DNA of 64,000 bases, taken from NCBI RefSeq assembly GCF_041261445.1, contig NZ_JBGCCU010000016.1, positions 186,001 through 250,000 on the forward strand, given 5' to 3'. Positions within the stretch are counted from its first letter, which is position 1. Each line of letters begins with the position of its first letter. The notes beneath the pieces are model-generated. The model did no database searches, was not told the DNA's origin, and saw only the letters and a list, made by a program, of their open reading frames with translations. Both the position numbers and the translations under genes were made by a program. This stretch comes from Catenulispora sp. EB89. GTDB lineage: Bacteria; Actinomycetota; Actinomycetes; Streptomycetales; Catenulisporaceae. Shown one piece after another: positions 44,679 through 61,007 of the stretch.

Positions 44679-45440
44679 ATGACCGCAGCGCTCTCCCACG
44701 ACCCGGTGGCGGCAGGTCGGCGCATGCCGCACCTGCCGTTGATCATGATGTACCACTCGGTGGGCGTCCGCCCGCACGACCCGAACAACCTGGCCGTGAC
44801 GCCGGAGCGGTTCGAGGAGCAGATGGCGGCGCTGAAGCACCGCGGGCTGCGCGGCGTGTCCGTCGCCGAACTGCAGGCCGCCCGGGCGGCCGGGTCGGCG
44901 CGCGGCCTGATCGGCCTCACCTTCGACGACGGCTACACCGACGTCGTGGAGAACGCGCTGCCCATCCTGCAGCGCTTCGGCTTCTCCGGGACGTTCTACG
45001 TCCTGGCCGGCCGGATCGGCGGGGCGAACGAGTGGGACGAGGGCACCCCGTGGCCGCTGGTCGACGAGACGGGGATCCGGCGTTGGGCTGACGCCGGGTT
45101 CGAAGTCGGGTCGCACGGCTCGATGCACGTGGCGCTGGCCGACGCGGGTCCGGACGTGCTGCGCACGGAGGTCGCGGAGAGCCGCGAGAAGCTGTCCGCC
45201 ATCGTCGGGAAGCCGGTCGGCGGCTACTGCTACGCCTACGGCTCGATGGACGCCGCGGCCCGCTCGGCGGTCGCCGCGGCGGGGTACGAGCACGCGACCG
45301 CCGTGATCTCCAGGGAGTCGCTGGGACCGCTCGCGCTGCCCCGGATCTGGATCGGCCAAGTGCACACGTCCAAACATATTCTTAAAATGCTCTACACCTA
45401 CCGCCTTCATCGCCGTATTTCCGGGCGGCATGCCCTATGA
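44679..45440 (+). CDS. Polysaccharide deacetylase (NodB homology, CE4)
   Basis: 253 residues. LIMMYHSVGVRP, then the metal motif LTFDDGYTDVVENALPIL (Asp-Asp), SHGSMH for the His-x-x-x-His metal ligands, and YCYAYGSMDAAARSAV. These enzymes remove N- or O-acetyl groups from surface polysaccharide or peptidoglycan. No signal peptide is evident, but the N-terminus (MTAALSHDPVAAGRRMPHLP) is short and mixed. The C-terminal end (HILKMLYTYRLHRRISGRHAL) is basic. First gene of the glycan locus. Confidence 0.9.
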   Translation: MTAALSHDPVAAGRRMPHLPLIMMYHSVGVRPHDPNNLAVTPERFEEQMAALKHRGLRGVSVAELQAARAAGSARGLIGLTFDDGYTDVVENALPILQRFGFSGTFYVLAGRIGGANEWDEGTPWPLVDETGIRRWADAGFEVGSHGSMHVALADAGPDVLRTEVAESREKLSAIVGKPVGGYCYAYGSMDAAARSAVAAAGYEHATAVISRESLGPLALPRIWIGQVHTSKHILKMLYTYRLHRRISGRHAL

Positions 45441-45639
45441 TTTCGAGGCCGCACGCCACCGACGGCACGGCGCCCCGGACAAGTTCGACTGACCGTGATC
45501 CGGCTCGAAGCTCTTGTCATCCGGTGCCCCCTGAGTACTCGCACCACGCGTAGCCCGCTGTATACCTTCCGCCACAAGCCGATTTCGGCTACAGAGGTCG
45601 AAGGCACCGCCGTCAGACCTTTCCCTTGGGGGGACACGA

Positions 45640-46482
45640 ATGCGATCGCTGTCGGTTGTGATACCGGCTTACAACGAAGCCGAGAACATCGAAGATGTAA
45701 TAGCTTCGATACCGGTTTCGCAGTTGGCTGACCTCGGCTGGTCCACGGAGATCGTAGTGGTCGACAACAACTGCAGCGACGGGACCGGGGACCTGGCGCG
45801 GGCCTGCGGCGCCGAGGTCGTGTTCCAGCCGGAGAAGGGCTACGGCAACGCCTACAAGGCCGGCTTCGCCGCCGCCAGGGGCGAGGTGATCGCCTCCGGC
45901 GACGCCGACCGGACCTACCCGTTCGACCACCTGCCGGAGCTGCTCGCCGAACTGGAGAGCTCCGGCGCGGACTTCCTGACCACCGACCGCCTGCACTCGG
46001 CCAACCGGGGTGCCATGAAGCACTCCCACTTCTGGGCCAACCACGTCCTGAGCTTCGTCTCCCGGCTCATCTTCCGGCACGGCATCCGCGACTCGCAGTC
46101 CGGCATGTGGATCTTCCACCGGCACGTCTGGGCCGGCGTCGACGTCCGCTCCCCGGGCATGGCCTTCTCCCAGGAGATCAAGAACGCGGCGGTCCTCGCG
46201 GGCTATAAGGTGACCGAAACGCACATCGAGTACCGGGTCCGCGGCGGCGACGTGAAGCTCAACTCGGTCCGCGACGGCCTGCGCAACCTGGTCCACCTGA
46301 TCGGCCACCGGATCCGCCACGACGGCCCGGCCTCCGATGGGTCCTACCAGGACCAGGACGTCCCCGCCCGAGCCCGGGCCAAGAGCGCCGTCCGGCTCCC
46401 GGCGATGCGTTCGGCGACCGTGTCAGATGGAGAAGGGGCAACACCGGGATGCCAGACGACGGGCAGCGGCACAGCCGCCTGA
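45640..46482 (+). CDS. Family 2 glycosyltransferase (dolichyl-phosphate-type)
   Basis: 280 residues. GT-A fold: LSVVIPAYNEAENIEDVIASI, VVDNNCSDGTGDLA, GYGNAYKAGFAAARGE and the DxD-like GDADRTYPFDH. A second catalytic-type segment is RDSQSGMWIFHRHV. The last ~45 residues after GHRIRHDGPA are low-complexity. TTGGGGGGA-type purines precede the ATG. It likely glycosylates a lipid carrier or protein. The next gene starts 34 bp inside its 3' end. Confidence 0.9.
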   Translation: MRSLSVVIPAYNEAENIEDVIASIPVSQLADLGWSTEIVVVDNNCSDGTGDLARACGAEVVFQPEKGYGNAYKAGFAAARGEVIASGDADRTYPFDHLPELLAELESSGADFLTTDRLHSANRGAMKHSHFWANHVLSFVSRLIFRHGIRDSQSGMWIFHRHVWAGVDVRSPGMAFSQEIKNAAVLAGYKVTETHIEYRVRGGDVKLNSVRDGLRNLVHLIGHRIRHDGPASDGSYQDQDVPARARAKSAVRLPAMRSATVSDGEGATPGCQTTGSGTAA

Positions 46483-47567
46483 GCGAGGTGTTCGCCCGGC
46501 TGTTCCCGGCCCGGTCCTCGGAGACCACGGCGGGCGCCGCCGGGCGTGGTTCCGGTGCGGGTGCGGGTGCGGGTGCACGGCAGCAGAACGTCGCCGGGTC
46601 CCGGGGGGTGGGAGCCGGGCATCGAATAACCGCGACTCTCCATGAGCCGGCCGCCTTCGCGGACCCGATGGCCGACACGACGCTGCTGGGGCGGATCACC
46701 CTGCCGGAGCCGACCGCCGAGCCGACCGCCGAGCCGACCGCCGAGTCGACCGCCGCGTCGACCGCCGCGTCGACCGCCGAGCCGATGGCCGACACGACGT
46801 TGCTGGGCCGGATCACGCTGCCGGAGCCGACCGCCGAGTCGATGGCCGAGCCGACCGCCGCGTCGACCGCCGAGTCGATGGCCGACACGACGTTGCTGGG
46901 CCGGATCACGCTGCCGCCGCCGACCGGAGAGCCGATCGCTGAGCCGTTCGCGGCGCCGATCCGCCCGAGCTCCGGTCCTGATTCCGGCCTGAACGCCGAT
47001 GACGCCGCGCCCCCCAACGCCGCCGACCGCATCGACATCGCCGAGGCCTACGCCGACATCGCGGATATAGCGGACATCGCAGACCTCGACGCCGAGGACG
47101 CGGGCACCGTCACCGCCGGCACCAGCGGGCCGACACCGCCCTGGTCCGTCCGGTCGTTCGTCGATCGGCACCGCCGACGGCTCACGATCCTCGCGGCGGG
47201 CATCGCAGCCGTCGGCATCCTGCTCGCCCTGCCGCCGGTCCGCACCCAGCTGCGGGACTCGTTCACCAAGCTGCCACAGCCCTACACGGCGCTGTACTTC
47301 ACCTCGCCGCCACAGGTCGACGGCGCCGTTCTGACCGTGCCGGTGAGCGTGCACGCCGTCGACACCGGCGCGAAGACCTTCAGCGTCCGCGTGTGGACCG
47401 TCGACTCCAAGGGCGCGGTCGACGGCAGCAAGACCATCGGCCTCACGTGGGACGGCCAGGCGCTGAGCGCCGTCGTCACCATGCCCGTCAGCCCCCAGTC
47501 CGCCTATGTCTGGGTCTCGCTCGACGACAGCGACCAGTCCCTCCACTACAAGATCGCGACGGCATGA
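46449..47567 (+). CDS. Single-pass membrane protein with three ADTTLLGRITLP repeats
   Basis: 372 residues. A disordered N-terminal half contains three copies of MADTTLLGRITLPEPTAE (residues ~74, 113, 144) separated by Thr-Ala-Glu-Pro spacers, then ADIADIADIADLDAED. A membrane segment lies at ~244-262 (LTILAAGIAAVGILLALPP), followed by an outer ~100-residue beta-rich domain (LYFTSPPQVDGAVLTVPVSVHAVD). It overlaps the GT2 gene by 34 bp and the next GT4 gene by four. The repeats face the cytosol if the N-terminus is inside. Threonines in DTTLLGR could be phosphorylation/FHA-binding sites (inference). I do not recognise the family. Confidence 0.8.
   Translation: MPDDGQRHSRLSEVFARLFPARSSETTAGAAGRGSGAGAGAGARQQNVAGSRGVGAGHRITATLHEPAAFADPMADTTLLGRITLPEPTAEPTAEPTAESTAASTAASTAEPMADTTLLGRITLPEPTAESMAEPTAASTAESMADTTLLGRITLPPPTGEPIAEPFAAPIRPSSGPDSGLNADDAAPPNAADRIDIAEAYADIADIADIADLDAEDAGTVTAGTSGPTPPWSVRSFVDRHRRRLTILAAGIAAVGILLALPPVRTQLRDSFTKLPQPYTALYFTSPPQVDGAVLTVPVSVHAVDTGAKTFSVRVWTVDSKGAVDGSKTIGLTWDGQALSAVVTMPVSPQSAYVWVSLDDSDQSLHYKIATA
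46668..46900. repeat. Three 93-117-bp repeats encoding the DTTLLGRITLP units
   Basis: Units beginning ATGGCCGACACGACG start at 46668, 46785 and 46878 (spacing 117 and 93 bp, both multiples of three). The core ~45 bp is almost identical in all three; the spacers are made of CCGACCGCCGAG and TCGACCGCCGCG 9-12-bp subrepeats. Confidence 0.9.
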
Positions 47568-48742
47568 CCGAGCAGAGCTCCCCCGAGCAGACAGCCCCCG
47601 CCCGCTCCACGCCGGGCAGGCGCCGACGCGTCGTTCAGGTCACCCCGAACTACCCGCCGCTGCTCGGCGGGGTGGAGCGGGTGGTGCAGATCCTGGCCAC
47701 GCGACTCGCGGACCGGAACGACGTCAGCGTGGTCACCACCGACCACCAGGCGGGCGGCGTGCCGCGGCGCACGGTCGAGAAGGGTGGCGTCAGGGTCCGG
47801 CGGCACCGGTCGCTGACCGTCGCGCACACTTCGCTGGCCCCCGGCATGTTCGGCTCGCTCCTGCGCGTCCCGCGCGGCACGGTGATCCATCTGCACTGCT
47901 CGACCGCGGTCGTGCCCGAGCAGGTCTGGCTCAGCGCCCGAATACGGGGCCAGAAGTACCTCCTGCACTTCCACATGGAGGTCGACGCCTCCGGACCGCT
48001 GGGCCGGCTGCTGCCGTTCTACAAGACGCACCTTTTCGGGCGGGTCGTCCGGGGCGCGGCCGGCGTCATCGTGCTCACCGAATCACAGCGCGACTTCCTG
48101 GCCGAGCGCTACGGCGCGGATCCGGCGAAGGTCCACGTGGTCCCCAACGGTGTCGCCGAGGAGTTCTTCCTCCCGCCCCGCGCTGCCGCCACGGAGCCGA
48201 TGACCGGCTCTGAACCCGACCCGCTGCGTCTGCTGTTCGTCGGCCGCCTGGACGTCCAGAAGAACGTCGCCCGGCTGCTCGACGCGATGGCGCAGGTCGG
48301 CGAACCCGTGCGGCTGCGCCTCGTCGGCGACGGCGACCTGCGTCAGGACCTGCTGGCGCAGACGGCTCGGCTCGGCTTGGCGGACCGGGTGGAGTTCGTC
48401 GGCCGCAAGCACGGCGAGGACCTGATCAAGGAGTACGCCGACGCCGACCTGTTCGTCCTCCCGTCGGACCGGGAGGGCATGGCGCTGGTGGTGCTGGAGG
48501 CGATGGCCGCCGGGCTGCCGGTGCTGGCCACCGCGGTGCCCGGCAACGTGGAGACGGTCGAGGGCGCGGGCATCCTGGCCGAACCGACCCCGCGGGCGCT
48601 GGCCGCCGCGATCGACGCGCTCGCCCGGGACCGCTCGGCGCTGGCCGCCCCGGCGGCGGCGGGCGCGGCACGTGTCGCCGACCGGCACTGGGACCAGGTC
48701 GTGGCAGCGGTCGAGGACGTCTACGAGCAGGTGGGATTCTGA
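47564..48742 (+). CDS. GT4-family glycosyltransferase
   Basis: 392 residues. GT-B fold, GT4: N-terminal VVQVTPNYPPLLGGVERVVQILATRLA; donor-site LFVGRLDVQKNVARLLDAM, VGDGDLRQDL, VEFVGRKHGEDLIKEYADADLFVLPSDREGMALVVLEAMAAGLPVLA with the EX7E-type motif (E at REGMALVVLE). It adds a hexose from a nucleotide sugar to a lipid-linked acceptor. Starts with ATGA overlap; its stop overlaps the next putative start as CTGA. Confidence 0.92.
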   Translation: MTEQSSPEQTAPARSTPGRRRRVVQVTPNYPPLLGGVERVVQILATRLADRNDVSVVTTDHQAGGVPRRTVEKGGVRVRRHRSLTVAHTSLAPGMFGSLLRVPRGTVIHLHCSTAVVPEQVWLSARIRGQKYLLHFHMEVDASGPLGRLLPFYKTHLFGRVVRGAAGVIVLTESQRDFLAERYGADPAKVHVVPNGVAEEFFLPPRAAATEPMTGSEPDPLRLLFVGRLDVQKNVARLLDAMAQVGEPVRLRLVGDGDLRQDLLAQTARLGLADRVEFVGRKHGEDLIKEYADADLFVLPSDREGMALVVLEAMAAGLPVLATAVPGNVETVEGAGILAEPTPRALAAAIDALARDRSALAAPAAAGAARVADRHWDQVVAAVEDVYEQVGF

Positions 48743-51306
48743 ACACCGAGACTTCGAACGGCAGGACGGCGCTGCTGGCGAGCGTCGTCCTGGCCGGCGC
48801 GACCGCCTCGTTCGGCGCCTTCTACCTCCCCGGCCCGCTGGCCACCCTGGCCGGGCTGTGGCTGATCCTCGGCGCGCCGACCGCGCTGTGGCTGGGCCTG
48901 GCGCAGCGGGTGGTGTCCCGGCTCGACTCCGCGCTGCTGGTCGCCTTCGGCTTCGCCCTGGTCACCGACTTCGCGGTGCTGCTGCTGGTGAACTTCGGGG
49001 CACCGCTGGTCGGCTACTACCGGCCGCTCGCGACGGTGCCGCTGGCGGCCGGGTTCGCGCTGGTCAACCTGCTGATCGGCGCCTTGTCCCCGCAGTGCGC
49101 GGTGGACTGGCACCGGATCCGGCGCCTGCGCCCGGAGGGCCTGCGGGTCATCGGCGGCTACGGCGTGCTGTGCGTGGTGCTGGCCGTCGCGGGCGCCACC
49201 CGGCTGAACAACGGGCTCGGCCCGCAGGTCAGCATGCTGGCGTACACGGCGATCGCCGGGCTGCTGGCCCTGATGCTGATCCGGCACAACCGGTACGCCG
49301 TCGAGGTCCTGGAACTCGGGGTCTTCCTCGGCGCGGCCGCCCTGCTGCTGCTGACGTCGCTGCGCGGCTGGCTGATCACCGGCCACGACATCCAGGTGGA
49401 GTACGAGGTCTACCGGCTCAACCTCGGCGGCGGACACTGGGTGATCTCGCAGTACGCGACGGCCTACAACGCCTGCCTGAGCATCACCCTGCTGCCGGTC
49501 GCGCTGACCAAACTCACCGCGTTCTCCGCGGCCGGGGTCTGGAAGATCGTCTTCCCGCTGATGTTCGCCGTGGCCCCGGTGGCGCTGTTCCGGTCGGTCA
49601 ACAACCTGGCGTCACGCCAGGTGGCTCTGCTGTCCTCGGCGCTGTTCCTGACGTTCCCGACGTTCTTCACCGACATGGCGTACATGGCGCGCCAGGAGAT
49701 CGCGTTCGTCATCCTCGGCGCGGCGGTCGTGGTGATGACCGACCAGGTCGCGGAGGCCCGGCTGCGGCGCTACGCGCTGGTCCCCTTGCTGACCGGGATC
49801 GTGCTCGCGCACTACTCGACGGCGTATGTGCTGGTGATGGTCCTGGGATCCGGCGTGGTGGTCACGACGGCCTGGCGGCTGCTGGACCGGATCGGCGAGC
49901 GGCGGCGCGGTCGCGGCGTCTCCGGGACCGCCGCCGCGAGCCAGGCCGCTGACACCTGGGACTACGGCGACTGGGACTACGGCGACAGTCTGGACAAAAC
50001 CGACGGAGTCGGTGAAACCAGCGGAGTCGGCGCGGCTGGCGGGGTCGGCACGGTCGGCACCCTCGCCGCAGAAAGGCAAGGCAGCGCAGGCGGCACCGGC
50101 GGCAAGGGCTGGCTCAGCCGGTTCTCCAAGGCCGTCCGCAACCCGGACGGCCCGCCGCCGAAGCCCGCGGCCCCGGCGTTCCTCACCGTCTGGCTGGTGG
50201 CCCTCACCGCCGTCCTGGCGGTCGGCTGGGCCGGCCCCGTGACCCACACCAGCGGCCAGCTGACCAGCACCCTGATCGCCTCATGGAAGGAGGTCATCGG
50301 CCAGACCTCGGACGTCGGCTCCGCCGACACCTCCCAGAGCCTGGTCGGCGGCTCCACGGTCACCGACGCCCAGCGCATGGCCGCCTATCTGGCCGAGACC
50401 CGCGCCTCGACCACCCAGGACCGCGACGAGGGCCTGCTGTACCCGCAGTCGGTGATCGACAAGTACCCGACCCCGATCACCTCCATCCCCGACCTGCCGC
50501 TGACCTCGGTCGGCACCGGACTGCAGAGCCTCGGGCTGCCGGTGGCGAGCCTGAACGGCCTGGTCCGCTTCGGCATCGCGGCCGGCATCCAGCTCCTGCT
50601 GCTGCTCGGCACCGCCGTGGCCCTGCTGGGCCTGCGCTACCGGCGGGTCCGGGCCGAGCTGACCCCGACCCGGGACCAGGCCGCGCTGGCCGTGGCCTCG
50701 ATCGCGGTCCTGGTGCTGCTGACGCTGGTACCGCAGCTCACGGTCGACTACAGCGTCCTGCGCGCACTCCAGCAGGGCATCTTCTTCTTCGGCCCGTTCA
50801 TGGCCGCCGGCCTGCTCTGGGCCCTGCGTTGGTGCGGCCGGTACCGGACTCCCGTGGTCGCGGCGGTGATCGCCGTGATGGCGATCGACATCACCGGCGT
50901 GGTGCCCCGCATCACCGGTGGCTACCAACCGCAGCTCGCACTGTCCAACTCGGGCAACTACTACGACGCGTACTACCCGACCGACGCGGAGATGGACGCG
51001 GCCGCGTGGCTGCAGAGCGTGTACGACCGCAGCTCCCCCGACGTGCAGCAGGGCATGCTTCTCCAGACCAGCCAGGACGTCTACGAACGGATCCAGACGG
51101 TCTATCTCGGCCCGGTCGACGGCACGGTCGATCCACTCATGCTGCAACCGGGGAGCTACGTCATGCTCGGGCACGCCGAGGTGGACCAGGATCGGGCGTC
51201 CGTCGACTACCGGGGGACCGCGGTGAACTACACGTACCCGACGAAGCTGCTCGAAGACCTGCTGGACAAGATTTATGTCGGTCCCGGAGTGGAGATCTAC
51301 CGATGA
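48739..51306 (+). CDS. Large polytopic membrane protein, DUF2206 / GT-C-like
   Basis: 855 residues if it begins at the CTG overlapping the GT4 stop (CTGA at 48739); otherwise 798 residues from GTG 48910. The extra 57 residues encode a good hydrophobic segment (LLASVVLAGATASFG), and an AGGTGGG box lies just before, so the early start is favoured. About 12-14 membrane segments; the acidic loop after segment four, GHDIQVEYEVYRLNLGGGHWV, resembles the GT-C catalytic loop. A cytosolic low-complexity insert (~390-470) includes WDYGDWDYGD and Gly/Val repeats. The C-terminal outer part has NYYDAYYPTDAEMDAAAWL. Likely adds or polymerises sugars on the outer face. Confidence 0.75.
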   Translation: MNTETSNGRTALLASVVLAGATASFGAFYLPGPLATLAGLWLILGAPTALWLGLAQRVVSRLDSALLVAFGFALVTDFAVLLLVNFGAPLVGYYRPLATVPLAAGFALVNLLIGALSPQCAVDWHRIRRLRPEGLRVIGGYGVLCVVLAVAGATRLNNGLGPQVSMLAYTAIAGLLALMLIRHNRYAVEVLELGVFLGAAALLLLTSLRGWLITGHDIQVEYEVYRLNLGGGHWVISQYATAYNACLSITLLPVALTKLTAFSAAGVWKIVFPLMFAVAPVALFRSVNNLASRQVALLSSALFLTFPTFFTDMAYMARQEIAFVILGAAVVVMTDQVAEARLRRYALVPLLTGIVLAHYSTAYVLVMVLGSGVVVTTAWRLLDRIGERRRGRGVSGTAAASQAADTWDYGDWDYGDSLDKTDGVGETSGVGAAGGVGTVGTLAAERQGSAGGTGGKGWLSRFSKAVRNPDGPPPKPAAPAFLTVWLVALTAVLAVGWAGPVTHTSGQLTSTLIASWKEVIGQTSDVGSADTSQSLVGGSTVTDAQRMAAYLAETRASTTQDRDEGLLYPQSVIDKYPTPITSIPDLPLTSVGTGLQSLGLPVASLNGLVRFGIAAGIQLLLLLGTAVALLGLRYRRVRAELTPTRDQAALAVASIAVLVLLTLVPQLTVDYSVLRALQQGIFFFGPFMAAGLLWALRWCGRYRTPVVAAVIAVMAIDITGVVPRITGGYQPQLALSNSGNYYDAYYPTDAEMDAAAWLQSVYDRSSPDVQQGMLLQTSQDVYERIQTVYLGPVDGTVDPLMLQPGSYVMLGHAEVDQDRASVDYRGTAVNYTYPTKLLEDLLDKIYVGPGVEIYR

Positions 51307-52478: not shown

Positions 52479-52931
52479 ATGAGGACGATGTACCGGCCCG
52501 CGGCCGAGACGCTGATGGTCGCCGGGCTGCTGGGCTGGGCCTACGTGGCGCTGGTCGCGGTGCTGCGGCCCGGCGCGCTCAGCATGCACATCGCCACCGT
52601 GCTGCCGATGCGGCGCGACACGTTCGGGGCGGTGAGCCTGGTGCTGTCGTTCGCCTGCGCGTACGCGCTGCGTGCCCGGACCGGCACGTTCTGGGCCCGG
52701 CGCGCCGGCCGGCCCGACCCGGCCGAGGCCGGGCTGGCCGCGGTCGGCGGGTACGCGTTCCTGGTGTGGGTCTACCTGTGCCTCAACAATCTGTCCCACC
52801 CTCGGACCACCGGGTACCGGTTGACCCACTTCTGGGAGCACCCGTCGGAGGGCACGACGGCCGTGCTGTGCTTCCTGCTGCTGACCGCCTGCCTGTTCGG
52901 CCTCCGGGTCCGGAAGGGGCGGCATGGCTAA
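52479..52931 (+). CDS. Small four-TM membrane protein of the glycan locus
   Basis: 150 residues, four hydrophobic segments (ETLMVAGLLGWAYVALVAVL, FGAVSLVLSFACAYAL, LAAVGGYAFLVWVYLCL, AVLCFLLLTACLFGLR). Motifs such as NNLSHPRTTGYRLTHFWEHPSEG sit in the loop before the last segment. No family recognised. It overlaps the flippase start by eight bases, so it may be a partner of that protein. Confidence 0.75.
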   Translation: MRTMYRPAAETLMVAGLLGWAYVALVAVLRPGALSMHIATVLPMRRDTFGAVSLVLSFACAYALRARTGTFWARRAGRPDPAEAGLAAVGGYAFLVWVYLCLNNLSHPRTTGYRLTHFWEHPSEGTTAVLCFLLLTACLFGLRVRKGRHG

Positions 52932-54801
52932 GGGCCGCCGCCGACGGGGGACCGCCGAACCGGGCAGCGGTGCCGAGGAGCCCGGTGGCGACGCGAGCGG
53001 CGGCATAGCCGACGCAAGCGATACACACGGTGATAAGAACGGCGAAGGCGACGCGAACAGCGTCGCGGGCGCGAAGATGCTCCGGAACTCGCTGTTCCTC
53101 ATGGCCTCCGCCGGCCTCACCGCCGGCATCGGCTTCGTGTTCTGGGCCCTCGTCGCCCACCTCTACACCTCGACCGAGATCGGCGTGGCCACCACGCTGC
53201 TGTCGGCGATCTCGCTCATCTCGTTCCTGAGCACGCTCGGGTTCGGGCAGACGATGATCCGGTTCCAGGCGGCCGGCGCGGCACGACACCGGCAGGTGTC
53301 GGTGATGCTGGCGATGGTGGCGGGCACCAGCTTCGTCCTCGGCACGGGCTACGTGCTGGCCCTGAAGACGATCTCGCCGGACCTCGCCTTCGTCCGCGAC
53401 AAACCCGGCTACGCGCTGGTCCTGATCGTCATCTGCGTCTTCGCCACGGTCAACCTGCTGACCGACGCGGTCTTCATGGCCGCGCGCCGGGCCGAGTACA
53501 ACACGCTGGTCGACGGCTTCATCCAGAGCCTGTCCAAGCTCGCCATCCCGATGTTCGTGGTCGCCTTGGGCGCCATGGGCATCGTCGCCGCCTCCGGGAT
53601 CGGGTACGTCGTGGCCACGCTGGCCTCGCTGTACCTGATGAACCGCAAGCTGGGCTTCCGGTTCTCCTTCCGGCTCGGCGGCACCCGGATCCGCGAGACC
53701 GCGAGCTACTCGGCGACCACGCAGTTCTCCTCGCTGCTGAACCTGATACCGCAGCTGGCACTGCCGGTCATCACGCTTCGCGCGCTGGGCCCGGACAACG
53801 TCACCTACTACTACCTGGGATCCCAGATCGCGGCGCTGTTGTCGACCGGCTCCTACGCGATCGGCAACGCGCTGTTCTCCGAGGGCGCGCACGATCCCGC
53901 GCAGCTTCGCAGCCTGATGATGCGGTCCGCGAAGATCATGACCGCGGTGATGGTCCCGGGCGTCGCGGCCGTGATCCTGGTCCGCGAGCCGCTGCTGGGC
54001 CTGTTCGGCGGCAAGTATCCGGGGCACGCGCAGGGGCTGCTGACGATCCTCGCGCTCGGCGCGCTCGCCGTCGCGTTCCACACCTGGGCCAGCAGCGCGC
54101 TGCGGATCACCGGGCGGATGAAGCCGCTGCTCGGCAGCAACATGGTGTACCTGGTCGCGACGCTGGCGCTGGCGCTCGGCTTCGCGCACCGGGGCCTTAA
54201 CTGGATCGGCTGGTCCTGGGCGCTGGGGAACCTGGCCTCGGGGCTGTTCGCGGTGGCGTTCGTGCCGGGCGCGAAGAAGCTGGCGGCGATGGCCGCGGAC
54301 GCCGAGGAGTACGACTACGACGAGCTGGAGCCCGAGGACCTCGCACTCGCCGGCGTCGGTGCCGGGGCCGGGGCGCCGCCGAGCCAGGTGCGGGAACGCC
54401 CGCGGCCCCGGCAGAGCCCGTGGCTCGGCGTCGGGGACTCGACGGCGATCACCGAACCGATGTTCTTCCCGTGGAACCGCCCCGAGGCACGGGGGCGCGG
54501 CGACCGGTTCGAGAGCTACGAACGCCAGAGCTCGCGCCTGAAGCCAGCCGGCGACCTGCGCGTGCGGCCCCGGTCAATGCCCCGCAAGGCCGGACCGGTG
54601 GTGGTGCCGCCGCCGTCGCCGGAGGAGGAGACGCAGATCCTGCGGCCCATCGTCGTGCCCGACTCGTTCTTCCGGCCGGAGCCGGGGGAACGCGACCGGC
54701 TGCCGAAGCCGGGCCCGCACGGTGCCGTGCCGGAGCCGCGGGGAGACGCCCGCCCCGAGGCGAGCGAGCCGAGCGATCCCCGGCTGCCGCCCGAGCGGTG
54801 A
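52924..54801 (+). CDS. Wzx/MATE-like oligosaccharide flippase with long cytosolic tail
   Basis: 625 residues. Residues ~50-455 form about twelve to fourteen membrane segments of the polysaccharide-flippase (PST/Wzx) family: LRNSLFLMASAGLTAGIGFVFW, HLYTSTEIGVATTLLSAI, FVRDKPGYALVLIVI, SYSATTQFSSLLNLIPQLALPV. The N-terminal ~50 residues are acidic/Gly-rich. The C-terminal ~170 residues are predicted disordered and cytosolic, with acidic EEYDYDELEPEDLA, ITEPMFFPWNRP, and EEETQILRPIVVP. It would flip the lipid-linked oligosaccharide made by the neighbouring transferases. The tail has possible phosphorylation sites. Confidence 0.88.
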   Translation: MAKGRRRRGTAEPGSGAEEPGGDASGGIADASDTHGDKNGEGDANSVAGAKMLRNSLFLMASAGLTAGIGFVFWALVAHLYTSTEIGVATTLLSAISLISFLSTLGFGQTMIRFQAAGAARHRQVSVMLAMVAGTSFVLGTGYVLALKTISPDLAFVRDKPGYALVLIVICVFATVNLLTDAVFMAARRAEYNTLVDGFIQSLSKLAIPMFVVALGAMGIVAASGIGYVVATLASLYLMNRKLGFRFSFRLGGTRIRETASYSATTQFSSLLNLIPQLALPVITLRALGPDNVTYYYLGSQIAALLSTGSYAIGNALFSEGAHDPAQLRSLMMRSAKIMTAVMVPGVAAVILVREPLLGLFGGKYPGHAQGLLTILALGALAVAFHTWASSALRITGRMKPLLGSNMVYLVATLALALGFAHRGLNWIGWSWALGNLASGLFAVAFVPGAKKLAAMAADAEEYDYDELEPEDLALAGVGAGAGAPPSQVRERPRPRQSPWLGVGDSTAITEPMFFPWNRPEARGRGDRFESYERQSSRLKPAGDLRVRPRSMPRKAGPVVVPPPSPEEETQILRPIVVPDSFFRPEPGERDRLPKPGPHGAVPEPRGDARPEASEPSDPRLPPER

Positions 54802-55009: not shown

Positions 55010-55798
55010 CTAGAACCGCCGGTTCGCCACCTGCACCCCGACCCACGCCAGATGCTTGACCCGCACCACCGGCAGGCTCCACCCCAGCCGGCGGGCCGCC
55101 GCCAGCTTCTCGCGCCGCAGCAGGCCGGAGCGCGGCAGGATCTTCGCCCGATGGCTGTGCTGCCCCTCGTGCACCCGGTAGCGCACCAGTTCCTCGGGCA
55201 GCGCGGCGACTTCGGCGCGGCCGAGGATGCGGAGCCAGAGGTCGTAGTCCTCGCAGTGGAGGGCGGCCTCGCGGAAGCCTCCCGCCTCGCGCACCACCTC
55301 CGCACGCGCCGTCACCGTGGACATCGTCACCGCGTTGAACAGCATCAGGCGGCGGCCCAGCGCTTCGGACCCGGTGGGGCAGTGGAACGGGGCCAGGTCC
55401 GCGCCGGTGGCGCTGTCGAAGGTGCGGGCCCAGGTGGCGAGCATGCCCAGGGCCGGGCGGCGGTCGAACTCGGCGACCTGGCGGGCCAGCCGTTCGGGGT
55501 CGCACAGGTCGTCCGAGTCGCAGAACGCGACCAGGTCGCCGCGGCACTCCGGGAGGCCGGCGTTGCGGGCCGCCGCGGGGCCGGAGCGGGGGCGCGCGGT
55601 GACGATGATCCGGATCTGGTCGGCCGGAAGGACGGCGGCCGTGCGCCGGTTCTCCTCGCAGTCGCCGTCCAGGACCAGGACCACCTCCCAGTCCTGGAAG
55701 GTCTGCTTCTGGATGGCGAGCAGCGTCTCCTCGAGATAGCGCTGGCGCGGGGCGCACGGGATGAGCACAGAGACCCGCGGCGCCTTGCCCGCGTTCAT
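55010..55798 (-). CDS. Family 2 glycosyltransferase
   Basis: 262 residues from ATG 55798, overlapping the glycosidase stop (ATGA). VSVLIPCAPRQRYLEETLLAIQKQTFQDWEVVLVLDG, GPAAARNAGLPECRGDLVAFCDSDDLCDPERL with the DxD region FCDSDD, and ALHCEDYDLWLRILGRA with the catalytic-base-type Glu-Asp. A cytosolic transferase of the GT2 spore/surface class. Transcribed with the glycosidase upstream. Confidence 0.92.
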   Translation of the reverse strand: MNAGKAPRVSVLIPCAPRQRYLEETLLAIQKQTFQDWEVVLVLDGDCEENRRTAAVLPADQIRIIVTARPRSGPAAARNAGLPECRGDLVAFCDSDDLCDPERLARQVAEFDRRPALGMLATWARTFDSATGADLAPFHCPTGSEALGRRLMLFNAVTMSTVTARAEVVREAGGFREAALHCEDYDLWLRILGRAEVAALPEELVRYRVHEGQHSHRAKILPRSGLLRREKLAAARRLGWSLPVVRVKHLAWVGVQVANRRF

Positions 55799-57039
55799 CG
55801 TCCCTTCTTCGCGTTGGCGATGATCTGCTGCAGCGCGTCGAACGAGGGCCGGTAGGTCCCGTCGCCCCGCCGCAGGCCGAAGACCAGGTGGTCCGGCGGC
55901 GAGTCCTGGTAGGAGAACCAGAAGAACGACGCCACGTTCGGGTACGAGGCCAACGCGTCGACCTCCTTCTTCGCCGTCTCCACCTGCTGCGCCTCCTGCG
56001 GCTTGACCTGGCTCGCCGGACCCCAGATCAGGGCCGGGATGTTCGCCCCGGTCTCGGTGATCCAGATCGGCATGTTCGGCGACCCGGCCTGGGCCAGCGC
56101 CGCGACGATGCTCGTCGGCGACTGGCTGATGGCCTGGAACGTCTTGCTGTTCGCCGGGTCGCCGTCCGGGTAGGGGTGGTACCCGATCCCGTCGACCGCC
56201 TTCAGGCCGCCGTCCTTGGCCACCGCGGTGATGAAGTCGTACGGGGAGATGAACGGCGCGCCGGGGCTCGGGTGGTCCGCCGCGAGGCCGCCCATCAGGA
56301 TGAACGCGTGCGGGTCCGCGGCGCGGATCGCCGCGGAGACCGGCAGCAGGAGCTTGGTGTAGTCCGCCGGGTCCGGGGTCGGGGCCCAGGCCGTGATGTT
56401 GGGCTCGTTCCACACTTCCCAGTGGTGGACGCCGCGCGCCGAGTAGCGCGCGACCGCCTGCTTCACGAACTTCGCGAACGTCGCGTTGTCGGCCGGCGGG
56501 CACGCGGAGGTGTCCTTGCAGGCGTCCCGGCGGGCCCACGGCGGCGGGAAGTCGATGGTGGCCAACACCTTCAGGCCGTGCGCGTTCGCCCCGGCGACGA
56601 CGTTGTCGAACTTGGTGAAGTCCGGCGCGTAGTTGGAGAAGGACTGGTAGTCCTCCCAGCCGAAGTCGACGCGGATGTAGTCCATCCCGAGCCGCTTGGC
56701 GTCGTCGAGCGCGGTCTTGAGCTGGTCCGGCGTGTCGTACGCGAGCGTGTCGCTGTAGTCCAGGCCCCACTTCATGTCGGCCAGCTGCGCGGTGTTGACC
56801 GGGCTGGTGGCCAGTCCGGTCCCGGAGGTGGCACCGGGGGAAGAACTCGGGCTGCCGGCCGGGGACGAGGTCGTGCCGGACGTCTTCGCGGCGGTCGAGG
56901 TCCCCGCCGGCGCGTGGCCGAACGCCGAGGGCTGGCCGGGATCGCCGCCGGAGACGGCGGTCGCGATGCCGGCGGCGATGACGACCGCGGCCGCGGCGGC
57001 CCCCACGATCGTCCAGTGCCGTCGCTTGCTGTTCGCCAT
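55795..57039 (-). CDS. Secreted or membrane-anchored clan-A glycoside hydrolase (GH39/GH5-like)
   Basis: 414 residues from ATG 57039. The N-terminus has KRRHWTIVGAAAAAVVIAAGIATAV, a signal anchor, then a Ser/Thr/Pro-rich linker (42-80). The catalytic domain has acid/base Glu212 in HWEVWNEPNITAW and candidate nucleophile Glu329 in MPIWITETGAN, the standard clan-A pair. Loops include DYSDTLAYDTPDQL, FPPPWARRDACKD. A xylosidase, glucanase or iduronidase-like activity is possible. Its position suggests trimming or recycling of the locus glycan. Confidence 0.85.
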   Translation of the reverse strand: MANSKRRHWTIVGAAAAAVVIAAGIATAVSGGDPGQPSAFGHAPAGTSTAAKTSGTTSSPAGSPSSSPGATSGTGLATSPVNTAQLADMKWGLDYSDTLAYDTPDQLKTALDDAKRLGMDYIRVDFGWEDYQSFSNYAPDFTKFDNVVAGANAHGLKVLATIDFPPPWARRDACKDTSACPPADNATFAKFVKQAVARYSARGVHHWEVWNEPNITAWAPTPDPADYTKLLLPVSAAIRAADPHAFILMGGLAADHPSPGAPFISPYDFITAVAKDGGLKAVDGIGYHPYPDGDPANSKTFQAISQSPTSIVAALAQAGSPNMPIWITETGANIPALIWGPASQVKPQEAQQVETAKKEVDALASYPNVASFFWFSYQDSPPDHLVFGLRRGDGTYRPSFDALQQIIANAKKGR

Positions 57040-57281: not shown

Positions 57282-58451
57282 GTGAGAATTCTGCACATCG
57301 TGAACCTGGGCTTCGAGGCCGGGGGCGCGGAGAAGTTCGTCCGCATGCTCCGGGACGGCCAGCGCGACCGCGGCCACCAGGTCCGGGTGGTGGCCCTGGA
57401 AGCCCCGTCCGGCGACCGGGCCGTGTTCGCCGACGACCTGCTCCCGCCGGTGGCCGGCGGCCCGGTCGGCAAGCTCGCCGGGTTCGTCTGGCATCGCCGG
57501 GCCCACCGCGGGCTGCGGCAGATCATGCGGGAGTTCCAGCCGGACTGTGTCCATCTGCACACCGTCGGCGGGTTCAGCCCGGCCGTGTTCCCGGCCACCC
57601 GCGGCGCCGTACGCATCCTCACCCTGCACGGCCCCGAGGACTGGACCCGGAAACTGTTGCGCTGGCAGGTGGCCGACAACGCCGGCCGGATCTCGCCCCG
57701 CGCCCTGCCCCGGTACCTGCATCTGCGGTTCCTGATGCGGCCGGCCTACCGGCTCCTCGGGCTGCGCCGGATCGACGGCTTCGCGGCCCCGAGCCGGTTC
57801 GTCGCCGACCTGCTCCGGGCCGACGCCGGCGCCGTGCCGATCCGGGTGATCCCGCACGCCGTGGACCGGGTCTTCGCCCCCGCCCCGGTCTCGGAGGTCT
57901 GGCAGGCGGCCTACGTGGGCCGGCTCAGCCCCCTGAAGGGCGCGGACGTCCTGCTGGCGGCGTTCGGCATCCTGGCCCGGACGCAGCCGAAGGCGCGGCT
58001 CGTCGTGGTCGGCGACGGCCCGGAGCGCGCCCGGCTGGAGGCGGAGGCCGCCGGCCTGGTGGCGGCTGGCACGGTCGAGTTCCGGGGCTGGCTGAGCCCG
58101 CCGGAGGTCGCCGAGTGCCTGCGCGGCTCGGCGTTGCTCGCCGTCCCGTCCACCACTCCGGAGATCTTCGGGCTGACCGCGCTGGAGGCGCTGGGGTTGG
58201 GCCGGCCGCTGGTGGCCAGCCGGATCGGGGCGTTGCCGGAACTGGTCGGTCCGGACAACGGCGTACTCGTCGCCCCCGGCGACCCGGCCGCGCTGGCCGA
58301 GGCGCTGGCGGAGCTGGTCGGTGACGCGGAGCGGCTGGCGCGGCTCGGCGAGGGATCGGCACGGCGCGCCGAGGCGTTCGGCCTGGAGCGTTGTCTGGAC
58401 GCCTACGAATCCTGGTACCAGGAGGCTGTCGCGGCCCGCGCTCGTCCGTAG
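57282..58451 (+). CDS. GT4-family glycosyltransferase
   Basis: 389 residues from GTG 57282 (VRILHIVNLGFEAGGAEKFVRMLRDG). The region upstream in the same frame reads like non-coding sequence. Donor motifs: YVGRLSPLKGADVLLAAFGIL, VVGDGPERARLEAEA, VPSTTPEIFGLTALEALGLGRPLVASRIGALPELV (EX7E). Divergent from the glycosidase; the 242-bp region between them has no clear palindrome. Confidence 0.9.
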   Translation: MRILHIVNLGFEAGGAEKFVRMLRDGQRDRGHQVRVVALEAPSGDRAVFADDLLPPVAGGPVGKLAGFVWHRRAHRGLRQIMREFQPDCVHLHTVGGFSPAVFPATRGAVRILTLHGPEDWTRKLLRWQVADNAGRISPRALPRYLHLRFLMRPAYRLLGLRRIDGFAAPSRFVADLLRADAGAVPIRVIPHAVDRVFAPAPVSEVWQAAYVGRLSPLKGADVLLAAFGILARTQPKARLVVVGDGPERARLEAEAAGLVAAGTVEFRGWLSPPEVAECLRGSALLAVPSTTPEIFGLTALEALGLGRPLVASRIGALPELVGPDNGVLVAPGDPAALAEALAELVGDAERLARLGEGSARRAEAFGLERCLDAYESWYQEAVAARARP

Positions 58452-58509: not shown

Positions 58510-59766
58510 CTATCGGCGCAGACGGTGTTCGGCCGCCTGCCACAGCGTCCGGGCACCGGCCAGGACGAACGGGACGGGGTCGTCGCAGGCGAACCACGCG
58601 GCCTCGTCTGCGGAGCGTGCAGAGGACAGCCACGAGCGCAGGGAGAGGCTTCCCTCCCGGCGATAGGCGAGGGCCGCTATCGGGTCGTAGTTCTCGACGA
58701 GCAGGGCCCGGCCGGGCACCGCCGCCCCGGCGGGCACGGCGCGGCCGGTGAGGTCCAGGTGCATCGCGCGGACGACGTCGATGCCGGCCGAGTCCTGGAA
58801 CAGCCGGAACTGGGCGCCGAGCCGGGGGTTGAGGTCCAGGAGCCGGTAGCTGCCGTCCCGCGCGTCCCAGCGGTAGTCGAGGTCGACCGGGCCCTGGTAG
58901 CCCAGCCCCGAGAGCAGGGCTGTCGCCTCCGCGCGCAGCCGCTCGTTCGACACCCAGCGGCCGTAGCTGGTCAGCCCCGCGTGCGCCGGGAAGGAGCGCT
59001 CCTTGATACCGGTGTGGCCGAACAGGCAGCGCGAGGCCGCGTCGAAGTAGCCGTGGAAGAACCAGTCCTGCGGCGGGCCGGTCGGCACGGGCGCGAGGTA
59101 TTCCTGGAGCAGCAGGCCGGTGTCCGGGCCGTCGCCGGTCGCCCGCCGGGCCCGCTCGACCACCGCGAGCATCTCCTCCCGGCTGCGGACGACGGTCGTG
59201 CTCTGCAATCCCGCCGACCGGTCCGCGGTCCAGGGCAGGTTCACCTTGGCCACGACGGGATATCCGCACGCGTCCGCGAAGGCCAGGGCCTCGGCGGCGT
59301 CCGCCGGGACGGTCGTCGCCGGATGCGGCACCCCGGCGACGCGGCAGATCTCGGCGAGCGTCGCCTTCCCGGCCGCCCGGCGCGGCAGGTCGGCCGGGGG
59401 CGCGGGGAACAGGTACCGGGACCGCAGCTTGTCACCGTGCTCGGCCAGCAGGATCGCGCCCGCGTCGTCGGTGGTGACCAGGACGGCCGGGCCGGGCAGC
59501 CGGTCGGCGAGCCGGTCCAGGAGCTCGACGACGTCGTCGGGATGGGCCCGGTCCGGCATCGGCGACACCGTCCGGCGGGCGTACCGCGACGCCCCGGCCG
59601 GCGCGAACCGGTCCTCGCGCATGGCGTGGACCCGGATCCCCAGCCGCCCGAGGCTCCGGATCACGCCGAGCCCGCCGTGGTGGAAGACATTCCGGTCGAG
59701 CTTCAAAAGCACGGCGCCGGTCGCGGTATCCGCATCAACCGACGCTTTCAGTGACATGGCAACCAT
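58510..59766 (-). CDS. ATP-grasp carboxylate-amine ligase-like protein
   Basis: 418 residues from ATG 59766 (an ATG at 59757 is also possible). Shows the ATP-grasp sequence: CGYPVVAKVNLPWTADR (ATP Lys), LLLQEYLAPVPTG, PVDLDYRWDARDGSYRLLDLNPRLGAQF with the metal-binding Asp/Asn/Glu-type region DLNPR. Such proteins ligate amino acids or other amines to carboxylates using ATP. The gene is convergent with the GT4 and adjacent to an FAD monooxygenase; together they could decorate the surface glycan, or make a small peptide, which is only inference. Confidence 0.8.
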   Translation of the reverse strand: MVAMSLKASVDADTATGAVLLKLDRNVFHHGGLGVIRSLGRLGIRVHAMREDRFAPAGASRYARRTVSPMPDRAHPDDVVELLDRLADRLPGPAVLVTTDDAGAILLAEHGDKLRSRYLFPAPPADLPRRAAGKATLAEICRVAGVPHPATTVPADAAEALAFADACGYPVVAKVNLPWTADRSAGLQSTTVVRSREEMLAVVERARRATGDGPDTGLLLQEYLAPVPTGPPQDWFFHGYFDAASRCLFGHTGIKERSFPAHAGLTSYGRWVSNERLRAEATALLSGLGYQGPVDLDYRWDARDGSYRLLDLNPRLGAQFRLFQDSAGIDVVRAMHLDLTGRAVPAGAAVPGRALLVENYDPIAALAYRREGSLSLRSWLSSARSADEAAWFACDDPVPFVLAGARTLWQAAEHRLRR

Positions 59767-59807
59767 CTTAGATTCAAGGTCAAGGCAGCCCTCGTCCTGT
59801 GGTGAGG

Positions 59808-61007
59808 TCAGCGCGGCAGTCTGGGTGCGACGGTGCGGGCCGCGAACTCCGACCCGAACACGAAGCGCATGGACGGCCCGAAGGTCGCCGCCGAAGCCAG
59901 GCCCACGACGAACAGCCCGGGCACCGAGGAGTTGAAGCCCGCGCCGAGGACCGGCGGGCCGTCGGAGCCGCGCATGCCGCGAACCTGGCCGCGCAGCTCC
60001 TCGCCGAGCATCGTCAGCTTCCGGACGTCCACATCGAACCCGGTCGCCGCGATCACGTGATCGGTGCCGAGCTCACGGCCGTCGGACAGCTCCAGGACGA
60101 GCCCGCCGGCCTCGGGCCGGGCCGCCGTGATCCGGGTGCCGGTGCGGACGTGCTCGACGTCGAAGGACTTCTCGAAGCGGTCGCGGATCCACCACGAGCC
60201 TTCCGGGCCGAGCGTCTTGCGCACGACCTCCATGCGGTAGCCGCCGGGCATCCGCCGGAAGAGCTTGGGCAGGCTGCCCAGCACCTTGTTGTAGTAGCCG
60301 GGGCCGAGGCCGTTCTCCGGGCGCCGGATGCGCTCCCACAACGTCACGGGCAGGTCGCCGGGCAGGCTGTTCCACTCCAGCGCACCGGTCCGCGCCACCA
60401 GCGTCACATCGGCGCCCGCGTCGTCCAGCAGCACCGCGATCTCGATCGCCGCCTGCCCGGCGCCGACCACAGTGACCCGCTTGCCCGCGAACCCGGACAG
60501 GTCGTTCACCGCGCTGCTGTGCAGCACCTGCGGCCCCTGCATCCCGACGAGCGCCTCTGGGAACCGTGGAAACGGCAGGAAGCCGGTGGCGAGCACCACG
60601 GAGCGGGCCCGCACCGAGGAGCCGTCGGCCAGCGCCAGCGCGAACACCGAGCCCTCCCGGTCGACCCGCAGCACGTCGGTCTCGTGCAGGTCCGGCGCGG
60701 TCTGCTGCCGGAACCAGCGGCCGTAGTCGACGAAGGTCTCGATGGGCGTCGGCACGCCGTGCGCGTACGGCAGCCCTTCAAGCTCGCAGTACGCCTTCAG
60801 CGTGTACTGGTCGCGGGGATCCGACAGGTGCGAGGCCCACGGCTCGGACTTGAGCTTCATGCCCAGCGGCATGTGCTCGGCCCAGGCGCGCATCGGCGTA
60901 CCGAACACCCGGGTGCGGGTGCCCCGCGCCTTGGCATGCGCCGCCACCGAGAGACCGTAGGGCCCGGCACCCACCACGGCGGTGTCGAGGACCTCTGTAC
61001 CTGTCAT
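59808..61007 (-). CDS. FAD/NAD(P)-dependent flavoprotein monooxygenase-like
   Basis: 399 residues from ATG 61007 (AAGGAGAAGTG before it; upstream open frame to 61469 looks random). FAD site AVVGAGPYGLSVAAHAKARG at residues ~10-30; NAD(P) site KRVTVVGAGQAAIEIAVLL near 175; ATG-type motif VLATGFLPFPRFP and VIAATGFDVDVRK. Resembles N-hydroxylating or Baeyer-Villiger-type flavoproteins, for example lysine/ornithine monooxygenase relatives (LKSEPWASHLSDP, YTLKAYCE). Precedes the ATP-grasp gene by 42 bp in the same direction, so both may form one operon. Confidence 0.88.
   Translation of the reverse strand: MTGTEVLDTAVVGAGPYGLSVAAHAKARGTRTRVFGTPMRAWAEHMPLGMKLKSEPWASHLSDPRDQYTLKAYCELEGLPYAHGVPTPIETFVDYGRWFRQQTAPDLHETDVLRVDREGSVFALALADGSSVRARSVVLATGFLPFPRFPEALVGMQGPQVLHSSAVNDLSGFAGKRVTVVGAGQAAIEIAVLLDDAGADVTLVARTGALEWNSLPGDLPVTLWERIRRPENGLGPGYYNKVLGSLPKLFRRMPGGYRMEVVRKTLGPEGSWWIRDRFEKSFDVEHVRTGTRITAARPEAGGLVLELSDGRELGTDHVIAATGFDVDVRKLTMLGEELRGQVRGMRGSDGPPVLGAGFNSSVPGLFVVGLASAATFGPSMRFVFGSEFAARTVAPRLPR

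What the first reader, a model, noticed from the sequence alone, without database searches (positions are those of the whole stretch)
44679..61007. Unrecognised surface-glycan locus lacking a standard Wzy/Wzz and priming transferase
The set has two GT2, three GT4, a flippase, a deacetylase, a clan-A hydrolase, a DUF2206/GT-C-like giant membrane protein, an ATP-grasp ligase and a flavoprotein monooxygenase. No classical polymerase, chain-length protein or phosphoglycosyltransferase was seen. The polytopic protein may act as polymerase or lipid-donor transferase; the ATP-grasp/flavoprotein pair may add an amino-acid decoration. This is the best candidate here for an undescribed pathway.
Basis: inference. 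Interest (0 to 1): 0.6.

Follow-up and report, generated by a model that had tools for sequence, protein, structure and literature searches.

The report
Bacterial sugar-coat locus with archaeal-like parts
A 13-gene block, kept together across Catenulispora soil bacteria, most likely builds and exports a surface or spore-matrix sugar polymer using a starter enzyme and a giant membrane protein related to archaeal ones instead of the textbook bacterial starter and polymerase.

Summary
The gene list is right; two genes were missed: a one-pass membrane protein with an extracellular beta-sandwich (46449-47567) and a small membrane protein (52488-52931). The block 44679-61007 is a unit: 5 of 5 other Catenulispora genomes read across it keep all 13 genes in order. 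D2206, GT4s, the bitopic protein, flippase and hydrolase persist in two sister-genus loci, the AglJ-like GT2 in one of them; D2206 with some partners recurs in four more distant actinomycetes. No PGT, Wzy or Wzz matched in the locus; PGT genes elsewhere leave priming in trans open. The giant is a divergent DUF2206 protein, matched by profile to a haloarchaeal one whose cluster also has an AglJ-like GT2, GT4s and a flippase. By described gene kinds the closest system is the imp cluster of Actinoplanes missouriensis (sporangium matrix, mBio 2025); sequence homology to it could not be tested. Best reading: a Wzx-type matrix/surface polysaccharide locus in which GT2a loads a polyprenyl-phosphate sugar and DUF2206 acts outside as transferase or polymerase. 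The amino-acid decoration idea is unsupported. New variant of a known kind.

The parts
44679..45440 (+). CE4 polysaccharide deacetylase, no TM or signal found by hydropathy
   Evidence: PF01522 E 5e-23; hydropathy; left end of the co-conserved block
45640..46482 (+). GT2a, polyprenyl-phosphate glycosyltransferase-like (DPM synthase / AglJ relative), GDADRTYPF signature, no TM
   Evidence: Best NCBIfam models NF041391 dolichyl-phosphate hexose transferase (E 1.6e-32) and AglJ (2e-30), both below cut-off; nearest PDB match of a 5-row profile P. furiosus DPM synthase 5mlz, E 2.7e-16
46449..47567 (+). Cbit: long, mostly unstructured N-terminal part (taken as cytosolic) with three ADTTLLGRITL repeats, one TM, C-terminal Ig-like beta-sandwich (taken as extracellular)
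   Evidence: No Pfam match apart from a low-complexity PT repeat below cut-off; AF2 pLDDT about 90 over the C-terminal beta-sandwich; related by profile to small TM proteins in two distant D2206 loci, HHalign 84%, E 7e-6
47564..48742 (+). GT4a glycosyltransferase
   Evidence: PF13692 E 1e-34
48739..51306 (+). D2206: 855-aa polytopic DUF2206-like protein, proposed extracytoplasmic transferase/polymerase; probable CTG (or ATT) start overlapping the GT4a stop
   Evidence: PF09971 E 4e-5, below cut-off; HHalign of an 8-row profile to a haloarchaeal DUF2206 protein 98%, E 2e-13, against 0.07-0.3% for three control membrane proteins; start
51303..52475 (+). GT4b glycosyltransferase
   Evidence: PF13579 E 1.5e-26
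52488..52931 (+). Small membrane protein (three TM by hydropathy, perhaps four), no family; matched in one sister-genus locus, not in the other
52924..54801 (+). Wzx-type oligosaccharide flippase with long C-terminal tail (conserved PMFFPWN)
   Evidence: PF01943 E 1.2e-12; tail
55010..55798 (-). GT2b glycosyltransferase
   Evidence: PF00535 E 1.2e-23
55795..57039 (-). Clan-A glycoside hydrolase, PslG-like, N-terminal TM or signal; the two Glu that I take as catalytic (recalled for the family) are invariant
   Evidence: PF00150 E 6e-16; PslG 4zn2 E 2.7e-27 with a 7-row profile; E212 and E329 invariant in 7 of 7 rows
57282..58451 (+). GT4c glycosyltransferase (start uncertain)
   Evidence: PF00534 E 9e-33
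58510..59757 (-). ATP-grasp protein, genus-level accessory
   Evidence: PF02786 E 7e-8
59808..61007 (-). FAD/NAD(P) oxidoreductase (monooxygenase-like), genus-level accessory, right end of block
   Evidence: PF13738 E 1e-20

Best explanation
A Wzx-type surface or spore/mycelium-matrix heteropolysaccharide locus. Cytosolic glycosyltransferases (GT4a-c, GT2b) build an oligosaccharide on a polyprenyl carrier; GT2a most likely attaches the first sugar to polyprenyl phosphate in place of a phosphoglycosyltransferase; the Wzx-type flippase turns it outward; the DUF2206 protein, perhaps helped by the bitopic beta-sandwich protein, then transfers or polymerises it outside. The deacetylase points to an N-acetylated hexosamine in the unit, and the PslG-like hydrolase trims or releases the polymer. 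ATP-grasp and flavoprotein are genus-specific accessories of unknown role. Shown: gene content, co-conservation, family relationships. Inferred: every catalytic step, the topology, the direction of transfer and the product.
For: Families confirmed. In 5 of 5 other Catenulispora genomes where the whole block was in hand, all 13 genes are present in the same order; 3 further genomes keep every gene that their contig or slice covers. D2206 is in 8 of 9 other genomes of the genus and 2 of 3 of sister genus g3. Both sister-genus loci keep Cbit, D2206, GT4b, Wzx, GT4c and GH5; GT2a matched in L025 only. In four more distant loci (G441, G448, G257, Nonomuraea) D2206 again lies beside GT4 genes and, in three of the four, a Wzx-type gene, with a glycoside hydrolase in the neighbourhood. 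Halomarina sp. BCD28 has AglJ-like GT2, GT4s, DUF2206 and flippase in one cluster. In 9 of 9 aligned actinobacterial D2206 proteins (three of them Catenulispora) D217, E221, R318, H358, Y359 and R675 are invariant; R318, H358, Y359 and R675 also in Halomarina. The imp cluster, with the same gene kinds, is involved in making a matrix polysaccharide.
Against: No usable structure of D2206 (AF2 pLDDT 32) and no PDB sequence match, so a GT-C fold is unproven; HHalign to one haloarchaeal GT39 protein gave 0.2%. D217 and E221 are not kept in the Halomarina protein. Candidate primers exist elsewhere in the genome. GT2a had no match in sister-genus locus L026; the GT2 genes beside D2206 in G441 and G257 carry FDADLEY and pair apart from GT2a; a motif search found no such GT2 in the Nonomuraea stretch. 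In A. missouriensis the whole-cluster deletion had a milder phenotype than several single ones. No product is known in Catenulispora.
Confidence: 0.55

Rival explanations
1. Ordinary Wzx/Wzy pathway with priming in trans: a PGT or WecA-type enzyme elsewhere starts the repeat unit on polyprenyl pyrophosphate, D2206 is simply a divergent Wzy, and GT2a adds an ordinary sugar.
For: PF02397 once and PF00953 five times in the genome; many Wzx/Wzy loci are primed in trans (recalled); the imp authors propose a Wzx/Wzy scheme with ImpE as Wzy.
Against: The PF02397 gene lies in another cluster that by eye holds an aminotransferase, a Gfo/Idh/MocA oxidoreductase and a NeuD-like transferase. GT2a belongs with polyprenyl-phosphate transferases and is the best-conserved protein of the set in L025 (67%) and G448 (57%).
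Confidence: 0.3
2. Three-component side-chain system: GT2a makes a polyprenyl-P-monosaccharide donor, the small membrane protein flips it as GtrA does, and D2206 adds the sugar outside to a polymer made by the rest.
For: DPM/GtrB-like GT2, small membrane protein and large polytopic protein in one block; such systems are known (PMC8035078 and PMC11127046, seen as search listings only).
Against: No GtrA match was listed for the small protein at an E limit of 10 (the filters drop most weak matches), and it has no match in sister-genus locus L025, which keeps GT2a and D2206. A Wzx-type gene is linked to D2206 in most loci seen.
Confidence: 0.12
3. Protein or wall-polymer glycosylation: D2206 is a ligase that moves the flipped oligosaccharide en bloc to protein or to cell-wall polymer, as AglB does in archaea.
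For: AglJ relationship of GT2a; a roughly 130-residue soluble stretch at the C-terminus of D2206 after its last predicted TM.
Against: No STT3/AglB family among the Pfam matches of D2206; the DUF2206/flippase cluster of Halomarina shows no annotated AglB in the 33 kb read (the gene table is incomplete); neighbouring hydrolases suit a polymer.
Confidence: 0.08

Closest known systems
imp cluster of Actinoplanes missouriensis (ImpA-ImpG, AMIS_66400-66460, beside gimB; PMC12691653: section 9 and part 1 of section 10 read, otherwise passages)
   Same: Kinds of genes: three GT4, one GT2, Wzx-type protein, multi-TM protein without domain (ImpD), large polytopic protein (ImpE, Alg6_Alg8 superfamily, matched domain starting at residue 163), GH5 gene adjacent; no PGT described in the cluster. 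By coordinate, sister-genus locus L026 reads GT4, GT4, Wzx, small TM, GT4, D2206, Cbit; imp by gene name reads GT4, GT4, Wzx, ImpD, ImpE, GT4, GT2.
   Different: GT4 and polytopic gene swapped; direction of transcription of imp not seen; L026 has no GT2a match. The Catenulispora block adds Cbit, deacetylase, GT2b, ATP-grasp and flavoprotein. The authors later speculate that ImpD may act as Wzz. Sequence homology not tested; D2206 profiles found 4 of 394 unnamed class genomes including our own and 0 of 2 flagellated genomes that I guessed might be close to Actinoplanes.
Haloarchaeal Agl/EPS-type clusters (AglJ, AepG; Halomarina sp. BCD28 plasmid cluster)
   Same: DPM/AglJ-like GT2, GT4s, DUF2206, flippase in one cluster; AepG, a DPM-like GT2, charges dolichol phosphate for an exopolysaccharide (PMC9943897, passages).
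   Different: No sulfatases here; GT2a scores 112 bits against the AglJ-type cut-off of 375; such an archaeal cluster was seen once; Cbit is not demonstrably DUF1616.
Classical Wzx/Wzy EPS pathway, e.g. Psl of Pseudomonas aeruginosa (recalled; PslG papers seen as search listing)
   Same: Wzx-type flippase, GT4s, PslG-like hydrolase in the cluster.
   Different: No recognisable PGT, Wzy or Wzz; DUF2206 giant and AglJ-like GT2 instead.
GtrABC-type three-component transmembrane glycosylation
   Same: Polyprenyl-phosphate-type GT2 plus large polytopic protein.
   Different: No GtrA match; Wzx-type protein and several GT4 present.

Membership tests
Classical Wzx/Wzy pathway | Wzx flippase | tested here: met
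   PF01943 E 1.2e-12
Classical Wzx/Wzy pathway | PGT priming enzyme in the locus | tested here: not met
   No match in the proteins scanned from 32.8 to 64 kb; PF02397/PF00953 genes elsewhere
Classical Wzx/Wzy pathway | Recognisable Wzy polymerase | tested here: not met
   No Wzy or O-antigen ligase family at E<=0.01 in the locus; D2206 may be an unrecognised one; rest of genome not searched
Classical Wzx/Wzy pathway | Wzz chain-length protein | tested here: not met
   No match in the locus; rest of genome not searched
imp-type matrix polysaccharide cluster | Kinds of genes (three GT4, GT2, Wzx, small multi-TM, large polytopic, GH5 beside) | tested here: met
   Window genes against the published description
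imp-type matrix polysaccharide cluster | Gene order | tested here: inconclusive
   L026 resembles imp with one swap but lacks GT2a; imp transcription direction not seen
imp-type matrix polysaccharide cluster | Sequence homology of ImpA-G | not tested
DUF2206 (PF09971) | Gathering score 35.6 bits | tested here: not met
   22.6-23 bits for the window protein; 35.5 for the G257 relative; 24.6 for Nonomuraea
DUF2206 (PF09971) | Profile homology to a bona fide member | tested here: met
   HHalign 98%, 2e-13, 621 aligned columns of 797; controls 0.07-0.3%
AglJ / dolichyl-phosphate hexose transferase | NCBIfam equivalog cut-off | tested here: not met
   112 bits against 375 (NF041391), 106 against 325 (TIGR04182)
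AglJ / dolichyl-phosphate hexose transferase | Transfers hexose to polyprenyl phosphate | not testable with these tools
   needs biochemistry
GT-C glycosyltransferase fold (D2206) | GT-C fold with catalytic acid in first core loop | tested here: inconclusive
   D217 and E221 invariant in 9 of 9 actinobacterial members, absent in Halomarina; AF2 failed; no sequence match to one GT39 protein
GtrABC three-component system | GtrA flippase (PF04138) | tested here: not met
   No GtrA match listed for the small membrane protein at an E limit of 10
PslG-like hydrolase | Homology and two conserved Glu | tested here: met
   7-row profile E 2.7e-27 to 4zn2; E212, E329 invariant in 7 of 7 rows

The most novel reading that the evidence does not exclude
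A bacterial polysaccharide pathway of archaeal (Agl) style: the unit is built on polyprenyl monophosphate by an AglJ-like primer, flipped by a Wzx/AglR-type flippase, and polymerised or transferred by DUF2206, a new class of extracytoplasmic glycan polymerase shared by actinomycetes and haloarchaea, with the bitopic beta-sandwich protein as its partner.
Probability: 0.3. Interest if true: 0.75.

Novelty: new variant of a known kind. Interest (0 to 1): 0.5.

Why it matters
If right, DUF2206, a family named in no paper of the held library, gains a testable role as the outer-face enzyme of a polysaccharide pathway in both actinomycetes and archaea. It would also suggest that some bacterial exopolysaccharides start on polyprenyl monophosphate without a phosphoglycosyltransferase, and it may give a sequence guide to the proposed but unproven Wzy (ImpE) of the sporangium matrix.

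Tried and rejected
AF2 of D2206 gave pLDDT 32 with six close sequences and was not used. The WDYG-like string in the D2206 loop recalled the STT3 WWDYG motif but is absent from L006, L025 and L026: rejected. A link between the ADTTLLGRI repeats of Cbit and the ETQILRPI string in the Wzx tail looked strong with a pattern written after seeing both (4 hits in 18,684 residues, all in these two proteins), but a matrix built from 7 repeats of the C. acidiphila-like protein did not put the Wzx string among its best 12 of 18,054 positions: treated as unproven. Cbit as DUF1616: HHalign 0.8%, rejected for now. GtrA for the small membrane protein: no match listed. Kinase beside the locus: the sister-genus loci L025 and L026 each have a Ser/Thr kinase gene next door (LamG-like domain confirmed by Pfam in L026 only), but such kinases are common in actinomycetes (recalled) and the Nonomuraea one carries WD40 repeats, so not counted. 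A tree of GT2a with 12 other GT2 rows was too poorly resolved to place it. D2206 in plasmid records: one hit, Nonomuraea; the Halomarina DUF2206 protein found only itself, so the archaeal parallel rests on one cluster.
Full report
What is there. The window lies in an 11.9-Mb genome (G000) whose nearest named relatives by the D2206 protein are five Catenulispora contigs (78-87% identity). Two more proteins belong to it. Cbit (46449-47567) has a long, mostly unstructured N-terminal part, one TM and a C-terminal beta-sandwich that AlphaFold2 models at pLDDT about 90; Foldseek lists assorted Ig-like and fibronectin-like domains, which I read as generic. The small protein at 52488-52931 has three TM segments by hydropathy, perhaps four, and no family. 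The giant protein has an open frame reaching upstream of the first ATG/GTG/TTG; conserved membrane sequence begins at a CTG (or ATT) codon overlapping the GT4a stop, in the window and in 7 of 7 other Catenulispora loci examined for it (L029 was not examined).

It is a unit. D2206 is found in 8 of 9 other genomes of the genus, 2 of 3 of sister genus g3, and in none of the remaining genomes of the 197 searched in the order. tblastn of the 19 genes of the region on fetched loci: the five genomes with the whole stretch in hand (G003, G017, G023, G009, G005) carry all 13 genes from deacetylase to flavoprotein in the same order; G011, G027 and G025 carry all genes that their slice or contig covers. 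G003 is a single contig of 10,467,782 bases, which I recall as the size of C. acidiphila; its name was not verified. Three genomes appear twice under different locus ids (L002/L035, L003/L031, L004/L034) and are counted once. G023 (C. rubra) also has an extra GT4. The neighbours on the left (OtsA, OtsB, nucleotidyltransferase) recur only in G023 among the loci that reach beyond the deacetylase (2.5 to 6.8 kb read); on the right, desaturase and MFS recur in G023 but not in the 8.5 and 9.6 kb read for G003 and G017. One same-genus genome (77% complete) had no D2206 match.

Core and relatives. Sister-genus loci L025 and L026 (about 20 kb each) keep Cbit, D2206, GT4b, Wzx, GT4c and GH5, with a further GT4; GT2a matched in L025 (67% identity) but nowhere in L026; the small membrane protein matched in L026 only; deacetylase, GT2b, ATP-grasp and flavoprotein matched in neither. 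With an 8-row profile, 4 of 394 class genomes including the window's own had D2206 at E<=0.001; overall identity of the three distant ones to the window protein is 27-34%. In G441 it lies among DPM-like GT2, acyltransferase, small TM protein, GT4, deacetylase, GT4, D2206, Wzx, GT4, GT2, with a GH5 relative about 15 kb away; in G448 among GT2a (57%), D2206, GT4, deacetylase, GT4 and GH5, with no Wzx on its 18-kb contig; in G257 among GT2, small TM protein, GT4, D2206 and Wzx with a GH26 gene beyond. Nonomuraea gerenzanensis has a small TM protein, two GT4-like genes (the second by eye and weak BLAST), D2206, and an open frame with GT4 and flippase domains, between GH16-like genes named by eye. 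The small TM proteins of G441 and G257 match Cbit by profile (84%, 7e-6). A motif search found no GT2a-like gene in the Nonomuraea stretch; its GT2a relative lies elsewhere in the record.

Family placement. GT2a: best NCBIfam models are archaeal dolichyl-phosphate hexose transferase and AglJ, 112 and 106 bits, below their cut-offs; the next model scores 62. Nearest solved structures of a 5-row profile: P. furiosus DPM synthase, then ArnC, GtrB lower. In PLSDB 24 records matched at E<=1e-20; of the 20 listed, 19 are haloarchaeal by name and one is Nonomuraea; two Citrobacter records are among the unlisted. D2206: PF09971 at 4e-5, under the cut-off; profile match to the DUF2206 protein of Halomarina sp. 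BCD28, 98%, 2e-13, 621 columns, against 0.3, 0.2 and 0.07% for an MFS protein, a GT39 protein and a flippase. That Halomarina plasmid cluster runs AglJ-like GT, GT4, GT4, sulfatases, GTs, methyltransferase, GT, DUF2206, flippase, with a DUF1616 gene near its far end. Of the other archaeal records opened, Halopiger, Natrinema pallidum (which has a flippase near the GT2) and Halobaculum show no annotated DUF2206 in the stretch read (the gene tables are incomplete); Natrinema gelatinilyticum is unannotated. The archaeal parallel therefore rests on one cluster. Hydrolase: PslG is the nearest solved structure of a 7-row profile; 34 of 394 class genomes, own included, have a relative at E<=1e-20.

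What is missing. None of the proteins scanned from 32.8 to 64 kb matches PGT, Wzy or Wzz families at E<=0.01. The genome has one PF02397 gene, on another contig in what looks by eye like a separate sugar cluster, and five PF00953 matches, so priming in trans is open.

Closest described system. The imp cluster of Actinoplanes missouriensis (PMC12691653; section 9 and part 1 of section 10 read; passages): three GT4, GT2, Wzx-like ImpC, five-TM ImpD, eleven-TM ImpE with an Alg6_Alg8 domain at residues 163-461, next to GH5 gene gimB. All single mutants made squashed sporangia (impG also normal ones); the impD mutant seemed to lack matrix; the whole-cluster mutant released spores like the wild type. 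A follow-up (PMC13390465, abstract and passages) keeps ImpE as presumed Wzy and ImpD as unknown, perhaps a Wzz. The kinds of genes agree with the window; order is close in L026 apart from one swap and a missing GT2a; D217 of our protein also follows a long N-terminal membrane part, as the ImpE domain does. That is resemblance by description; the sequence test failed for technical reasons. I recall that Catenulispora forms spore chains, not sporangia, so the product would be a mycelial or spore-chain matrix if the function is shared.

Mechanism. Most likely: GT2a charges polyprenyl phosphate; GT4a-c and GT2b extend (at most five sugars if each acts once); the deacetylase modifies a HexNAc; Wzx flips; D2206 transfers or polymerises outside; the hydrolase trims. 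D217, E221, R318, H358, Y359 and R675 are invariant in the 9 actinobacterial members aligned (three of them Catenulispora), and R318, H358, Y359 and R675 also in Halomarina, which suits an enzyme but does not show one. All catalytic statements are inference.

Verdict. 'DUF2206' occurs in no paper of the held library, and a search for papers with four of five terms on polyprenyl-phosphate exopolysaccharide in actinobacteria found none; that library holds open-licence papers only.

Noticed in passing
window 48736-48742: The D2206 gene seems to start at CTG (or ATT) overlapping the GT4a stop codon (GGTGGGATTCTGA), kept in the window and 7 of 7 other Catenulispora loci examined; a start at the first ATG/GTG/TTG would cut 57 residues.
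   Followed up: partly
window 46670-46900 (within 46449-47567): The N-terminal part of Cbit carries repeats of ADTTLLGRI/L with varying copy number: 3 in the window, 4 in L003, more in L027, 1 in L006, none in L002, L004 and L005.
   Followed up: partly
window 52924-54801, C-terminal 140 residues: The Wzx-type protein has a long C-terminal tail with PMFFPWN kept in all the Catenulispora rows printed; a similar MVFPWNRPEW in both sister-genus proteins. Partner unknown.
   Followed up: no
L025 13537-15993 and L026 12458-14401: Ser/Thr kinases next to the sister-genus loci, with a C-terminal LamG-like domain (Pfam in L026; by eye in L025); possible glycan-sensing regulator.
   Followed up: no
L003 13448-14608: C. 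rubra has a second GT4b-like gene (81%) just after Wzx, so the repeat unit may differ between species.
   Followed up: no
L085 14884-17436: The PslG-like hydrolase has a relative annotated as disaggregatase-related protein on a Methanomethylovorans plasmid.
   Followed up: no
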